Below, one piece after another: positions 42,692 to 47,159 of a DNA stretch of 64,000 nt. Below the pieces are notes generated by a model, which ran no database searches, was not told the origin of the DNA, and saw only the letters and a program-made list of their open reading frames with translations. Both the position numbers and the translations under genes were made by a program. Location of the stretch: NCBI RefSeq assembly GCF_007164525.1, contig NZ_AP019791.1, forward strand, positions 1,289,501 to 1,353,500, in the 5' to 3' direction. Position 1 is the stretch's first letter, and every line of letters starts with the position of its first letter. The stretch is from Rubrobacter xylanophilus (GTDB lineage: Bacteria; Actinomycetota; Rubrobacteria; Rubrobacterales; Rubrobacteraceae).

Positions 42692-43741
42692 ATGGCGGAG
42701 GTACGCAGGGTAGGCATGCTCACCGGCGGCGGGGATGCCCCGGGCCTGAACGGTGTGATCCGGGCCGTCACCGTCAAGTGCATCGAGGACTACGGCTACG
42801 AGGTGGTCGGGATAAAGCGCGGCTGGAAGGGGCTTCTGGCCCCCGAGGAGGACTCCGTCCAGAAGCTCACCGTGGACGACGTCCGCTACATCCTCGACGA
42901 GGGCGGCACCGTGCTCCTCTCCTCCCGGACCAACCCGTACAAGAAGGAGGGGGATGCCGAGAAGGTCGTGAAGAACATGCAGGAGTTCGGCATCGACGCC
43001 CTAGTGGCCATCGGCGGCGACGACACCCTGGGCGTCGCCAGCAGGCTCCACAAAGACTTCGGGGTGCAGATCGTAGGCTGCCCGAAGACCATAGACAACG
43101 ACCTCTCCGGCACCGACACCTGCTTCGGTTACGACACCGCCGTCTCCATCGCCACCGAGGCCCTCGACCGCATCAGGACCACCGCCAGGAGCCACGAGAG
43201 GATACTGGTCGTCGAGATCATGGGCCGGCACGCCGGTTGGATCACCTACGGCGCCGGGCTCGCCGGGGCGGCGAACGTCACCCTCATCCCCGAGGTCGAG
43301 CCGGACCTCGACGCCATCGCCGACCTCTTCAAGAAGCGGGCCGAGCGGGGCGAGAAGTGGGGCGTGGTCGCCGTGAGCGAAGGGGTGACCATCGGCGAGG
43401 AGTACATCACCCAGACCGCCGAGCGCGACGAGTTCGGCCACATCCGCCTCGGCGGCATCGCGGAGACCCTCGCCAAGGAACTCAAGGAGCGCACCGGGAT
43501 AGACACCCGCCACGTGGTCCTCGGGCACCTGCAACGCGGCGGAACCCCCACCGCCTACGACCGCATCCTCTCCACCCGCTACGGCATCCGGGCCGCCGAG
43601 GCGGTGAAGAACGGCGAGTGGGGCAAGATGGTCGCCCTGCGCGGCAGCGACATCGTCACCGTCTCGCTGGAGGAGGCCACCGGGGAGACCCGCACCGTGC
43701 CGGAGGACCTCTACGACGTCCTGAAGACCTTCTTCGGCTAA
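42692..43741 (+). CDS. pfk: 6-phosphofructokinase with diphosphate-type active-site residues
   Basis: This 349-residue enzyme phosphorylates fructose 6-phosphate in glycolysis. MLTGGGDAPGLNGVIRAV is the N-terminal phosphate loop and EIMGRHAGWITYGAGLA the substrate site. Two residues decide the donor. GGDDT has Asp111 where ATP enzymes have glycine (E. coli Gly104), and PKTIDND has Lys132 where ATP enzymes have glycine (Gly124). Both changes are the accepted signature of diphosphate-dependent enzymes, so PPi rather than ATP is the likely donor. The catalytic aspartates of TIDND (135, 137) are kept. ATG follows AAGGAGGAGG. It is followed at once by a TPP riboswitch. Confidence 0.95.
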   Translation: MAEVRRVGMLTGGGDAPGLNGVIRAVTVKCIEDYGYEVVGIKRGWKGLLAPEEDSVQKLTVDDVRYILDEGGTVLLSSRTNPYKKEGDAEKVVKNMQEFGIDALVAIGGDDTLGVASRLHKDFGVQIVGCPKTIDNDLSGTDTCFGYDTAVSIATEALDRIRTTARSHERILVVEIMGRHAGWITYGAGLAGAANVTLIPEVEPDLDAIADLFKKRAERGEKWGVVAVSEGVTIGEEYITQTAERDEFGHIRLGGIAETLAKELKERTGIDTRHVVLGHLQRGGTPTAYDRILSTRYGIRAAEAVKNGEWGKMVALRGSDIVTVSLEEATGETRTVPEDLYDVLKTFFG

Positions 43742-43783
43742 AGGACGCAGAGAGAGACCTTGCCATACACTGATCCCGAACGC

Positions 43784-43860
43784 GCCAGGGTGCCTCGTAG
43801 GAGAGGCTGAGAGAAGGCCCTTGGAACCTGAACCGGATTACACCGGCACGGGAGCAGATA
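43784..43860 (+). promoter_or_regulatory. TPP riboswitch (THI element), first copy
   Basis: The conserved parts are present in order: CCAGGGTGC, GGCTGAGAG, TTGGAACCTGAACCGG, ATTACACCGGCACGGGA. These match the P2-P5 core of the thiamin diphosphate aptamer. A 19-pair hairpin follows directly, so control by premature termination is likely. No thiamin gene follows for at least 740 bases; the next genes are a small membrane protein and an AGCS symporter. Edges are approximate. Confidence 0.9.
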
Positions 43861-43866
43861 GAGGTG

Positions 43867-43914
43867 AAGAGAGAACTGCCGCGCCTCCTCAGGAGGGCGC
43901 GGCAGTTCTCTCTT
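43867..43914 (+). terminator. Strong 19-bp hairpin behind the first TPP riboswitch
   Basis: The arm at 43867-43885 is perfectly complementary to 43896-43914. The stem ends in CTCTCTT with no longer T-run. It is the expected expression platform of the riboswitch. Confidence 0.85.
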
Positions 43915-43916
43915 GG

Positions 43917-44657
43917 GCCGCCGTAGTAAGGAAGCCCGACTACTTGCGGCCCGAGATATCCGTCGAGACTAAGCTCAAGTGCAGCGTAGACCACGTGAAG
44001 CTACGCATAGAAGACCGCCGCTCCGGCACTCGCTCGATCCTGGCAGCCGGTGACAGCGGGCCGTGAGCTCCTCGGTCCTCGCCTCGCCGGAGCTCAATAT
44101 CCGCGGGCCTGGCCAGATGATCGTCGCTCCAGGGTTCCGTTCGTCACCCGAAAGGAATGGGTGAGATGTAGGTCAGCCGACACGCCCTACCATACAACCC
44201 TACCCGCGACTGCCCGTGAGGGGCATCTGAAAGCGCGAGATGACCGCGAACCGGTGGCGGCGGGAGGCGTATCGGCTGTTCCGGTTATCACTCTCCCCAA
44301 ACACTGCTCGGCGAGATAGTCGCCTGCAGAGCGGCCCCCGAGGAGGTCTGTGACCGACTTGCGGAAAGAGGCGAAAGAGCGTCGGTCAACTCAGGATATC
44401 ACCGGAGGCCCAGCTCCGAACCCTGCGAGAGAGATAGAAGGCACGAACGAGAACCTTGTGCTCTATCTGCGGGCTGCGCACCTCATAGTCTCGCTCATCG
44501 GTCCGGAACCGTGCGCCACTGCCACCGCGTCATGCCGGAGAGACGGTCGAGCTGGGCTGCCTGCCGAGCCGTGATAGGCTGACGATGATGCGTCCGGGGA
44601 TACCAGATCCAGGCGTGCCTTCAGTTAACAGCTCCTCCCAGGGAGGATAGCGCGCGG
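43917..44657. other. Gene-free stretch between TPP riboswitch hairpin and small membrane protein gene
   Basis: No frame here has a good binding site, family match or the usual third-position bias. The base composition is lower in GC than the flanking genes. It may be the remains of a gene once controlled by the riboswitch, or a long leader of the AGCS gene. A weak hairpin (CTCCTCCCAGGGAGGA) near 44632-44647 is next to the start of the small gene. Confidence 0.55.
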
Positions 44658-44819
44658 ATGCGCTCCCCGGCGTGGATGGTCGCCTACGCCGTGATGCTCG
44701 GGCTTCTGGGAGCGTCCTACGCGGCGCTGGTCTTCATCGGGCCGCGGGCGGCGCTTCTCTTCTCTCTGGCAGCCCTCGCAGCCGTCATCGTCGCGCTGGT
44801 GCTCACGATCCTGGGATAG
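44658..44819 (+). CDS. 53-residue two-helix membrane protein
   Basis: ATG at 44658 lies behind GGGAGG, eleven bases upstream. The protein starts MRSPAWMVAYAVMLGLLGAS and has two hydrophobic helices (MVAYAVMLGLLGASYAALVF and LLFSLAALAAVIVALVLTIL). It is 83 bases upstream of the AGCS symporter gene on the same strand. Sodium symporters of other families sometimes have such small partner subunits (for example YhdT with PanF, MetS with MetP). A partner role is plausible but inferred. No family assignment is possible from sequence alone. Confidence 0.55.
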   Translation: MRSPAWMVAYAVMLGLLGASYAALVFIGPRAALLFSLAALAAVIVALVLTILG

Positions 44820-44902
44820 CAGGCGCGGCAGCGATCGCGAGAGAGAGGCCCATGCTCCTCTATACTACCGAGAGTTCGCACGGCTCATGGGGAGGAGTTG
44901 GA

Positions 44903-46300
44903 ATGGACGCATTGGAAGGCATCGTTTCAGCAGCGAACACGCTAATCTGGACCTACTTGCTGGTTGCGCTCCTGATTGGACTCGGAGTCTACTTCACGGT
45001 CCGCTCGAACTTCGTGCAGTTCCGGATGATCCATGAGATGGTACGGGTCCTAGTGGGCTCGGCAGACGGAGGGATCTCCTCCTTCGGCGCCTTCGCGGTG
45101 GGGACGGCGGCGAGGGTCGGCACCGGCAACCTCGCAGGCGTCGCCCTCGCCATCGGGATCGGCGGACCAGGTGCCGTATTCTGGATGTGGCTGATCGCAC
45201 TCATAGGCTCGGCCTCGGCCTTCGTGGAGAGCACCCTCGCCCAGCTCTACAAAGTCCGTGACGGGGACACATTTCGCGGCGGTCCGGCCTACTACATGGA
45301 GAAGGCGCTCGGGCAGCGTTGGATGGGCGTGCTCTTCGCCGTCCTCATCACCTTCACCTTCGGTCTGGTGTTCACCTCCGTTCAAGCAAACACCATCTCC
45401 CTTGCCATAAACGAATCCTATGGGATAAGCCGTTTCCTGCTCGGCCTCGTGCTCCTCGCGATCACGTCGCTCGTGATCTTCGGAGGCATCAAGCGCATCG
45501 CACGCGTGGCGGAGGTGCTGGTGCCGGTATTCGCCATCCCCTACGTTCTGATGGCGCTCTACATCATCACAGCGAACATCACAGAGCTGCCGCGTATCCT
45601 CTATCTGATCGTCTCCGACGCTCTCGGACTGCAACCGGCCCTTGGAGGGGGACTCGGCGCAGCCTTGCTGGTAGGTATCCAGCGCGGGTTGTTCTCCAAT
45701 GAAGCGGGGATGGGCAGCGCCCCCAACGCCGCAGCCACAGCGAGCGTCTCTCACCCGGTCAAGCAGGGCCTCGTGCAATCCTTCGGCGTCTTCGTGGATA
45801 CGCTCATCATTTGCAGCGCGACGGCGTTCATCATCCTCTTCTCCGGCATCTATCAGTCCGGGGAGGCGGACGGCATCGCCCTCACCCAGCAGGCTCTGGC
45901 GAGCCAGATCGGGGAGTGGGCCTCGTCGTTCATCGCCTTCGCAGTCTTCACCTTCGCCTTCTCCTCTATAATCGCCAACTACTACTACGGAGAGACGAAC
46001 ATTGAGTTCATAACCGGCGATGACCGTTACATCTTCTACTACCGCCTAGCTGTGCTGGCCCTAATCCTCTTCGGCTCCGTGGCCGCACTGGAGCTGGTCT
46101 GGACTCTGGCGGACCTGTTCATGGGCTCGATGGCCCTGGTGAACCTCGTCGCCATCGCCTTGCTTGGCCATCTCGCCTTCGCCGCCCTCAAAGACTACCG
46201 TTCCCAGCGCCACGCCGGCAAGGATCCCGTCTTCCGGGCCTCGAACATCCCCGGCCTGCGCAATACGGAGGTCTGGGGAGACTCCAAGAGGGTGCGGTGA
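44903..46300 (+). CDS. AGCS-family sodium/amino acid symporter
   Basis: This 465-residue protein is an alanine/glycine:cation symporter: FTVRSNFVQFRMIHEMVRVL, SSFGAFAVGTAARVGTGNLA (the family signature), GGPAYYMEKALG, and GIQRGLFSNEAGMGSAPNAA. About eleven membrane helices are expected. ATG at 44903 follows GGGGAGGAG. Known members take up alanine, glycine or related amino acids with sodium. It lies between two TPP riboswitches, with the first one far upstream, so a thiamin-related substrate or regulation is possible but not shown. Codon choice is a little less GC-rich than in neighbours. Confidence 0.93.
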   Translation: MDALEGIVSAANTLIWTYLLVALLIGLGVYFTVRSNFVQFRMIHEMVRVLVGSADGGISSFGAFAVGTAARVGTGNLAGVALAIGIGGPGAVFWMWLIALIGSASAFVESTLAQLYKVRDGDTFRGGPAYYMEKALGQRWMGVLFAVLITFTFGLVFTSVQANTISLAINESYGISRFLLGLVLLAITSLVIFGGIKRIARVAEVLVPVFAIPYVLMALYIITANITELPRILYLIVSDALGLQPALGGGLGAALLVGIQRGLFSNEAGMGSAPNAAATASVSHPVKQGLVQSFGVFVDTLIICSATAFIILFSGIYQSGEADGIALTQQALASQIGEWASSFIAFAVFTFAFSSIIANYYYGETNIEFITGDDRYIFYYRLAVLALILFGSVAALELVWTLADLFMGSMALVNLVAIALLGHLAFAALKDYRSQRHAGKDPVFRASNIPGLRNTEVWGDSKRVR

Positions 46301-46344
46301 CGAGATGGCTGCAATCCATCGACAATCGTTGTAGATTAAAGGGG

Positions 46345-46440
46345 GACAATCGGGGAGCTTCCGGCAGGGAGCTGAGAGGGCGCTGGAGCCGCGCCGACCC
46401 GCTGAACCTGATCCGGGTAATGCCGGCGGAGGGAGAGATG
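46345..46440 (+). promoter_or_regulatory. TPP riboswitch (THI element), second copy
   Basis: TCGGGGAGC, GAGCTGAGAGGG, GACCCGCTGAACCTGAT, CCGGGTAATGCCGGCGGAGGGA give a near-canonical thiamin diphosphate aptamer. A -10-like TAGATT at 46332-46337 places the transcript start just before it. A hairpin with a short T-run follows, then the tenA-tenA-symporter operon, which fits repression of thiamin precursor salvage when TPP is plentiful. Confidence 0.93.
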
Positions 46441-46462
46441 GAAAGATGTCGAAACCCATTGG

Positions 46463-46490
46463 CGCTCCGGCTAAGGTTGCCGGAGCGTTT
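46463..46490 (+). terminator. Terminator of the second TPP riboswitch
   Basis: CGCTCCGGC at 46463-46471 pairs with GCCGGAGCG at 46479-46487 around TAAGGTT, followed by TTT. It lies between the aptamer and the first tenA gene and is the likely expression platform. Confidence 0.8.
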
Positions 46491-46535
46491 CGTCGTCTCC
46501 CCCTCCAAAACCCGGACCGCGGAGGAGGGAGGCCC

Positions 46536-47159
46536 ATGAAAGCACGAGAACTGCTGGAGCGGCACCGGGACCTCTGGAGTGGCGCCACCCGCCACCCGTT
46601 CCTCGAAGGGGTGCGCCGGGGGACGCTTCCCCGGAAGGCCTTCGAGAGGTGGCTGGTGCAAGACTACCTGTTCGTCCTGGAGGGTCTGAAGTTCCAGGCG
46701 AACCTCCTCGCCCGGGCGCCCCGGAGAGACCAGCGGCTCCTCATCGGGGGGCTCTCGGACCTGGAAGAGGAGCTCGGCTGGTTCGAGGAACAGGCCGGGC
46801 GCAGAGGCCTCGACCTCCACGCCCGGCCCCATCCCATCAACGCCGCCTACTGCGGCTTTCTCGCGAGGCTGAAGAGCGAAGCCTACGCAGCAGGCATCAC
46901 GGCGCTGTGGGCGTTGGAACGGGCCTATCTCGAAGCCTGGCGGGGCGCCGCGCCGGGGGCCCCGGAGTACCGGGAGTTCGTGGAGCACTGGAGCATGCCG
47001 GAGTTCGAGGAGTACGTCCTTCGTCTGGAGGAGGCGGTGGACGCCGCGCTCGGGGAGGCCCCGGAGGAAGAGCGCGCGCGGGCCGGGAGGGTCTTCCCGG
47101 AAGTCGCCCGCCTCGAGAGGGACTTCTGGGAGATGGCTCTGGAAGGAGGAGAGGAATGA
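46536..47159 (+). CDS. TenA-family protein, cysteine-less (TenA_E) type
   Basis: This 207-residue all-helical protein is of the TenA/thiaminase II family. WLVQDYLFVLEGLKFQANLL has the conserved aspartate (Asp43), and AGITALWALERAYLEAW replaces the cysteine segment of classical TenA. No cysteine is found at that site, so it belongs to the TenA_E branch, which is thought to use glutamate and to salvage amino- or formylamino-pyrimidine products of thiamin damage. ATG at 46536 follows GGAGGAGGGAGG. It overlaps the second tenA by four bases and lies behind a TPP riboswitch. Confidence 0.9.
   Translation: MKARELLERHRDLWSGATRHPFLEGVRRGTLPRKAFERWLVQDYLFVLEGLKFQANLLARAPRRDQRLLIGGLSDLEEELGWFEEQAGRRGLDLHARPHPINAAYCGFLARLKSEAYAAGITALWALERAYLEAWRGAAPGAPEYREFVEHWSMPEFEEYVLRLEEAVDAALGEAPEEERARAGRVFPEVARLERDFWEMALEGGEE

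What the first reader, a model, noticed from the sequence alone, without database searches (positions are those of the whole stretch)
43784..44903. TPP riboswitch with no recognisable thiamin gene behind it
The aptamer and its 19-pair hairpin look intact, yet about 740 bases without a supportable gene follow. The next same-strand genes are a 53-residue membrane protein and an AGCS symporter. Either a thiamin gene was lost, or the riboswitch has a long leader and controls the symporter pair. AGCS carriers are not known to be thiamin-related, so the second option would add a new candidate transporter.
Basis: partly seen in the sequence, partly recalled or inferred. Interest (0 to 1): 0.55.

Follow-up and report, generated by a model that had tools for sequence, protein, structure and literature searches.

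The report
Decayed leftover of a thiamin riboswitch
A bacterial vitamin-B1 sensor RNA appears to have been left behind after the vitamin-B1 gene it once controlled was lost or moved, and it has since decayed; the transporter gene further on looks like an ordinary neighbour with no sign of being controlled by it.

Summary
The RNA at 43777-43870 is a real but damaged TPP aptamer: 38.0 bits, gathering score 54.3. Aptamer and terminator align with the leaders of thiE in the same family. In G021, G002, G014 and G022 a TPP riboswitch with thiE-thiSG-thiO lies downstream of the same PFK gene. In the window's own genome thiE-thiSG sits elsewhere, with its own 71.9-bit riboswitch.

The stray copy differs at 14-15 of 54 columns invariant in nine thiE leaders; each of those nine, left out in turn, deviates at 0-3. 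The 740-base gap has no coding signal. A thiE 3' scar at 44038-44091 is suggestive only.

The 53-residue ORF is a conserved gene. AGCS orthologues in 7 other genomes have no TPP match up to E 5 within 1.0-1.5 kb upstream, while the same scan finds the window's decayed copy.

Verdict: a relict of a lost or moved thiamin operon, not a new thiamin transporter.

The parts
42692..43741 (+). PFK, 6-phosphofructokinase gene; the anchor of the neighbourhood in relatives
   Evidence: TIGR02483 449 bits, PF00365; 95% identical in G001
43777..43870 (+). decayed TPP aptamer (relict of a thiE leader), no facultative stem
   Evidence: RF00059 38.0 bits, below gathering score 54.3; 85% over 60 nt to the thiE leader of G001 and 81% over 62 nt to that of the own genome; 14-15 of 54 conserved columns changed
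43867..43914 (+). perfect terminator-like hairpin, homologous to the terminator stem of thiE leaders
   Evidence: -41.4 kcal/mol; homology to thiE leaders runs through it: 43788-43911 at 73% (G001) and 43788-43915 at 70% (own genome); alignment
43915..44657 (+). gap without coding signal; 43916-44645 has no family match below E 0.004 in 39 genomes
   Evidence: 39 genomes, listed matches; codon scores; profiles of 8 gene families; only thiE scored
44038..44091 (+). possible scar of the 3' part of thiE (right strand and order); suggestive only
   Evidence: nhmmer 3.9 bits, E 0.0017; 0 of 1000 shuffles reach it, but 4 of 496 unrelated real slices do, and a frameshift-tolerant protein test did not separate it from background (188 of 600)
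44658..44819 (+). conserved 53-aa membrane-type protein gene (SORF)
   Evidence: tblastn 49-65% identity in loci from 8 other genomes; no NCBIfam or Pfam match
44903..46300 (+). AGCS sodium:amino-acid symporter gene
   Evidence: TIGR00835 500.5 bits, PF01235 532.1 bits; orthologues at 74-79% in 7 of 59 other genomes...
   Evidence: RF00059 63.4 bits, E 4.3e-10
46536..47159 (+). tenA-like gene 1
   Evidence: PF03070 104 bits
47156..47797 (+). tenA-like gene 2
   Evidence: PF03070 116.3 bits
47794..49224 (+). SSF-family symporter gene behind tenA
   Evidence: PF00474 92.4 bits

Best explanation
43777-43914 is the left-behind 5' leader (TPP aptamer plus terminator) of a thiE-thiSG-thiO operon that once stood downstream of PFK, as it still does in relatives. 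In this lineage the operon was lost from this place, and thiE-thiSG now stands about 210 kb away with an intact TPP riboswitch of its own. Released from selection, the stray aptamer lost P1 and parts of the pyrophosphate-sensor side (P4 and J4/5), so it should no longer bind TPP usefully or switch. The hairpin stayed and is now a perfect palindrome; it probably acts, if at all, as an unconditional terminator that ends PFK transcripts. The 53-aa gene and AGCS further on belong to the PFK neighbourhood and are expressed independently. Shown here: homology to thiE leaders, operon order in relatives, the changes in the aptamer, no TPP match before AGCS in orthologues. Inferred: loss of TPP binding, role of the hairpin, separate expression of AGCS, and whether the operon was moved or was copied and then lost.
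For: Leader homology: 43788-43847 matches thiE leaders best (85% G001, 81% own genome) and the match runs through the hairpin (alignment). Operon order: G021 PFK-(two small predicted ORFs)-TPP-thiE-thiSG-thiO-TPP-tenA-tenA-SSF; G002, G014, G022 PFK-inverted GT2-TPP-thiE-thiSG-thiO-(144 aa)-tenA. Own thiE at 1544616-1545152 and thiG at 1545484-1546212 behind a 71.9-bit TPP riboswitch. Decay: 38.0 bits, against 64.3-74.4 for the ten thiE leaders G000, G001, G002, G005, G010, G013, G014, G017, G021, G022; 14-15 of 54 conserved columns changed, 0-3 for each leader left out; J4/5-P4 signature missing, while 60 of the 62 other aptamers read match the pattern and the other two keep the CG by eye. AGCS: no TPP match before 7 orthologues in a permissive scan that does find the window's own copy.
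Against: The thiE scar in the gap is weak: 4 of 496 unrelated real slices score as high, the frameshift-tolerant test failed to separate it (188 of 600), and part of it (44056-44098) also matches unrelated places in several genomes at E 0.004-0.1. No trace of thiSG, thiO, tenA1, AGCS, GT2, PFK or ABH was found in the gap. So a copied leader without its gene cannot be excluded. P1 counts alone are not decisive: a free search lets the window form 3 of 5 pairs, as in 8 of 63 aptamers (window included), and 3 others score lower. Several conserved letters remain (CTGAGA, ACCTGA, P5). Seven other aptamers with 39-58 bits are kept in place in relatives, so a low score alone is not proof of decay.
Confidence: 0.85

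Rival explanations
1. A working TPP riboswitch with a long leader that controls the 53-aa gene and the AGCS symporter, making AGCS a new thiamin-related carrier.
For: Same strand and order; about 740 bases without a gene; AGCS stands directly before a canonical TPP-tenA-tenA-SSF unit here and in G010, and at the end of such a cluster in G021.
Against: Decayed aptamer and a perfect terminator between it and AGCS. 7 orthologues without a TPP match within 1.0-1.5 kb upstream. AGCS directly behind PFK in G005 and G017. 0 of 80 AGCS loci elsewhere with a TPP-like pattern; the pattern finds 19 of 19 known loci. A review says AGCS carriers are often under glycine riboswitches (PMC11477304, passages). 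The genome has a ThiT-type carrier (TIGR02357, 151.1 bits, cut-off 108.45) directly behind another TPP riboswitch.
Confidence: 0.04
2. A copy of the leader alone (or with a scrap of thiE) arose here by duplication; no full operon ever stood at this place in this lineage.
For: No clear thi coding remnant in the gap; the own genome holds an intact thiE leader of the same type.
Against: It sits downstream of PFK, where the full operon stands in four relatives read; a weak thiE match in the right strand and order.
Confidence: 0.1
3. The hairpin has been taken over as the PFK terminator and is under selection, while the aptamer is only its decayed neighbour (a refinement of the best explanation).
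For: The arms are now a perfect 19-base palindrome, longer than the stems of the thiE leaders in the alignment; no other terminator-like site on the + strand was found in 43000-46800 by the simple scan, which also missed this hairpin.
Against: A palindrome can perfect itself by templated mutation without selection (recalled, not tested); there is no U-tract behind the stem, only within it.
Confidence: 0.4

Closest known systems
TPP riboswitch (THI element, Rfam RF00059)
   Same: Overall layout without the facultative stem, CTGAGA and ACCTGA motifs, P2, P3 and P5, and a terminator-like hairpin behind it
   Different: 38.0 bits, below the gathering score; P1 damaged, one P4 base and one G beside P2 missing, J4/5 CG changed to CA, part of the segment between aptamer and terminator missing, no thiamin gene behind it
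thiE-thiSG(-thiO) leaders of the same bacterial family
   Same: Homologous from the aptamer through the terminator stem; same PFK neighbourhood in G021, G002, G014, G022
   Different: Those leaders score 64.3-74.4 bits and stand in front of thiE; this one has no gene
AGCS carriers under glycine riboswitches (PMC11477304, passages seen)
   Same: Same carrier family
   Different: No glycine riboswitch reported in the window at Rfam's gathering scores nor in L034 up to E 5

Membership tests
TPP riboswitch RF00059 (as a working member) | score at or above the curated gathering score | tested here: not met
   38.0 against 54.3 bits
TPP riboswitch RF00059 (as a working member) | pyrimidine-sensor side with CTGAGA | tested here: met
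   GCUGAGA present in the alignment
TPP riboswitch RF00059 (as a working member) | pyrophosphate-sensor side: J4/5 CG and P4 closing letters | tested here: not met
   CA and a missing P4 base; 60 of 62 other aptamers read match the pattern, the other two keep CG by eye. 62 of the 113 other matches were read. That these letters contact the pyrophosphate is recalled
TPP riboswitch RF00059 (as a working member) | closing helix P1 | tested here: not met
   3 of 5 P1 pairs marked non-standard in the Rfam alignment; nine thiE leaders printed form 5 of 5
TPP riboswitch RF00059 (as a working member) | thiamin gene behind it | tested here: not met
   no coding signal up to 44657; next genes are the 53-aa gene and AGCS
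TPP riboswitch RF00059 (as a working member) | binding of TPP | not testable with these tools
   needs in-line probing or similar
relict of a thiE leader | sequence homology to thiE leaders through the terminator | tested here: met
relict of a thiE leader | same genomic place as the operon in relatives | tested here: met
   downstream of PFK in G021, G002, G014, G022
relict of a thiE leader | remnant of thiE coding sequence | tested here: inconclusive
   44038-44091: for, against or neutral
TPP-controlled transporter (AGCS) | riboswitch kept before orthologues | tested here: not met
   0 of 7 orthologues up to E 5 within 1.0-1.5 kb upstream

The most novel reading that the evidence does not exclude
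The altered aptamer is not dead but changed: with its pyrophosphate-sensor side rewritten it responds to another thiamin-related compound or to none, and its perfected terminator now sets how far PFK transcripts run on into the 53-aa gene and AGCS.
Probability: 0.04. Interest if true: 0.6.

Novelty: new member of a known kind. Interest (0 to 1): 0.15.

Why it matters
It shows how a riboswitch decays once its gene is gone: the ligand side first, with the terminator kept. It also warns against naming a new transporter from a riboswitch hit and a neighbour alone: a comparison of gene order across relatives removes the AGCS-thiamin link. Beyond that it is ordinary genome wear.

Tried and rejected
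AGCS as a TPP-controlled carrier: rejected. Coding gene hidden in the gap: rejected on codon scores and tblastn with ORFs of 28 related loci (apart from the 53-aa gene the best of them has E 0.006). Gene remnants in the gap: DNA profiles of thiE, thiSG, thiO, tenA1, agcs, gt2, pfk and abh: only thiE scored (3.9 bits). A frameshift-tolerant protein comparison of my own was too lenient to be useful (188 of 600 real slices score as high; its background also held at least one true thiE-like locus, L063). Background with real slices: 509 slices, 13 of them true thiE homologues by score and place, 4 of the other 496 at or above 3.9 bits. A first version of the aptamer-letter count read some loci on the wrong strand; it was redone. 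Promoter and terminator scan: 0 promoter-like sites and 1 terminator-like site, on the minus strand, neither above chance. Genome-contig scan with AGCS gave 80 loci, none from this family. Literature. Only one search gave a paper with both 'TPP riboswitch' and 'AGCS' (PMC11477304, passages seen), where AGCS is tied to glycine riboswitches; one search gave none. The other papers were seen as listings only.

Full report
The window is G000:C1:1289501-1353500 of a 3,022,875-base genome. The family is, from recall and not from a call, probably Rubrobacteraceae.

OBSERVATION. Rfam at gathering scores finds one TPP riboswitch in the window, but at 46341-46451 (63.4 bits), not at the place named. A permissive scan of 43700-44700 finds the named one at 43777-43870 with 38.0 bits against a gathering score of 54.3. 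The hairpin 43867-43914 is real: 19-base perfect arms, -41.4 kcal/mol. The following bases to 44657 show no coding signal; five ORFs there score negative, while the 53-aa ORF at 44658 scores like a gene. AGCS follows at 44903-46300, then the canonical TPP riboswitch and tenA, tenA and SSF genes.

WHERE THE APTAMER COMES FROM. Its nearest relatives among the loci held are thiE leaders: 85% over 60 nt to G001 and 81% over 62 nt to the own genome. Against 39 genomes of the family the match runs on through the hairpin (G001 73%, 43788-43911; own genome 70%, 43788-43915). The alignment of nine leaders shows the shared terminator stem and that the window lacks about 10 bases of the segment before it.

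GENE ORDER. G021 (L060): PFK, two small predicted ORFs, TPP, thiE, thiSG, thiO, TPP, tenA, tenA, SSF, ABH, 53-aa gene, AGCS. G002, G014, G022: PFK, inverted glycosyltransferase, TPP, thiE, thiSG, thiO, a 144-aa ORF, tenA. G005 and G017: TPP, thiE, thiSG, thiO, TPP, tenA, tenA away from PFK, and PFK-AGCS-ABH elsewhere. G010: PFK, 53-aa gene, inverted glycosyltransferase, AGCS, TPP, tenA, tenA, SSF, with its thiE operon on another contig. G001, same genus: PFK, canonical TPP, an ABC system with an NMT1/THI5-like protein, 53-aa gene; no AGCS match at E 1e-60. G007 and G029: PFK then the 53-aa gene. In the own genome thiE and thiSG lie at 1544616-1546212 behind a 71.9-bit TPP riboswitch, in a place like that of G001.

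DECAY. Ten thiE leaders score 64.3-74.4 bits; this one 38.0. In an alignment with nine of them, 54 columns are invariant in the nine and the window differs at 15, or 14 if the P4 deletion is placed by hand; each of the nine left out in turn differs at 0-3 of 54-57. Two caveats: near relatives among the nine (own and G001; G002 and G014) make their own counts low, and the count depends on the alignment. Of 63 aptamers read (the window's and 62 of the 113 other matches), 60 match the J4/5-P4 pattern; two more keep CG by eye; the window reads CA with a missing base. P1: 3 of 5 pairs are non-standard in the Rfam alignment, though a free search allows 3 of 5.

THE GAP. Only a profile of thiE scores there (44038-44091, 3.9 bits, + strand, 0 of 1000 shuffles; E 0.0017). 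Against real sequence the support is weaker: 4 of 496 unrelated slices reach it, a frameshift-tolerant test did not separate it, and 44056-44098 matches unrelated places too. I treat it as suggestive.

AGCS. Orthologues at 74-79% exist in 7 of the 59 other genomes searched. A permissive Rfam scan of these loci finds no TPP match before any of them up to E 5 (1.0-1.5 kb upstream), while it finds the window's own 38-bit copy; in G010 a TPP lies behind AGCS, as in the window. In 80 AGCS loci of other bacteria (a capped list; 980,292 bases) a TPP-like pattern is absent; it finds 19 of 19 known loci. The own genome has a ThiT-type protein (TIGR02357) and thiD behind another TPP riboswitch.

CONCLUSION. 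The stray leader is best read as a relict of the thiE operon (0.85). Loss of binding, the role of the hairpin and separate expression of AGCS are inferred. A changed but working aptamer keeps a small probability (0.04).

Noticed in passing
The SSF gene may be a thiamin-related carrier (ThiV type is recalled, not tested).
   Followed up: partly
L063 12314-12434, L052 8742-8844, L054 5569-5671, L055 6788-6905, L056 6166-6281, L062 9445-9561, L053 130-232: In seven relatives a second TPP riboswitch lies inside the ABC operon, behind the permease gene and, in the six where it is in view, before the NMT1/THI5-like gene. All seven share an unusual P5/P4 junction and score 39-58 bits. It may tune the binding protein apart from the rest, or sense something slightly different.
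   Followed up: partly
G000:C1:1544412-1546212 and 2104065-2105168: thiE-thiSG of the own genome has no thiO beside it, and the best ThiO-like protein in the genome is only 39% identical, while G001 has one at 59%. The glycine-oxidase step may have been replaced.
   Followed up: partly
window 44658-44819: A 52-53-aa membrane-type protein kept in loci of 8 other genomes, next to PFK, ABH or AGCS, without a Pfam or NCBIfam match.
   Followed up: partly
window 43867-43914: The terminator stem has become a perfect 19-base palindrome, longer than in the thiE leaders; templated mutation or selection as a PFK terminator would both explain it.
   Followed up: no
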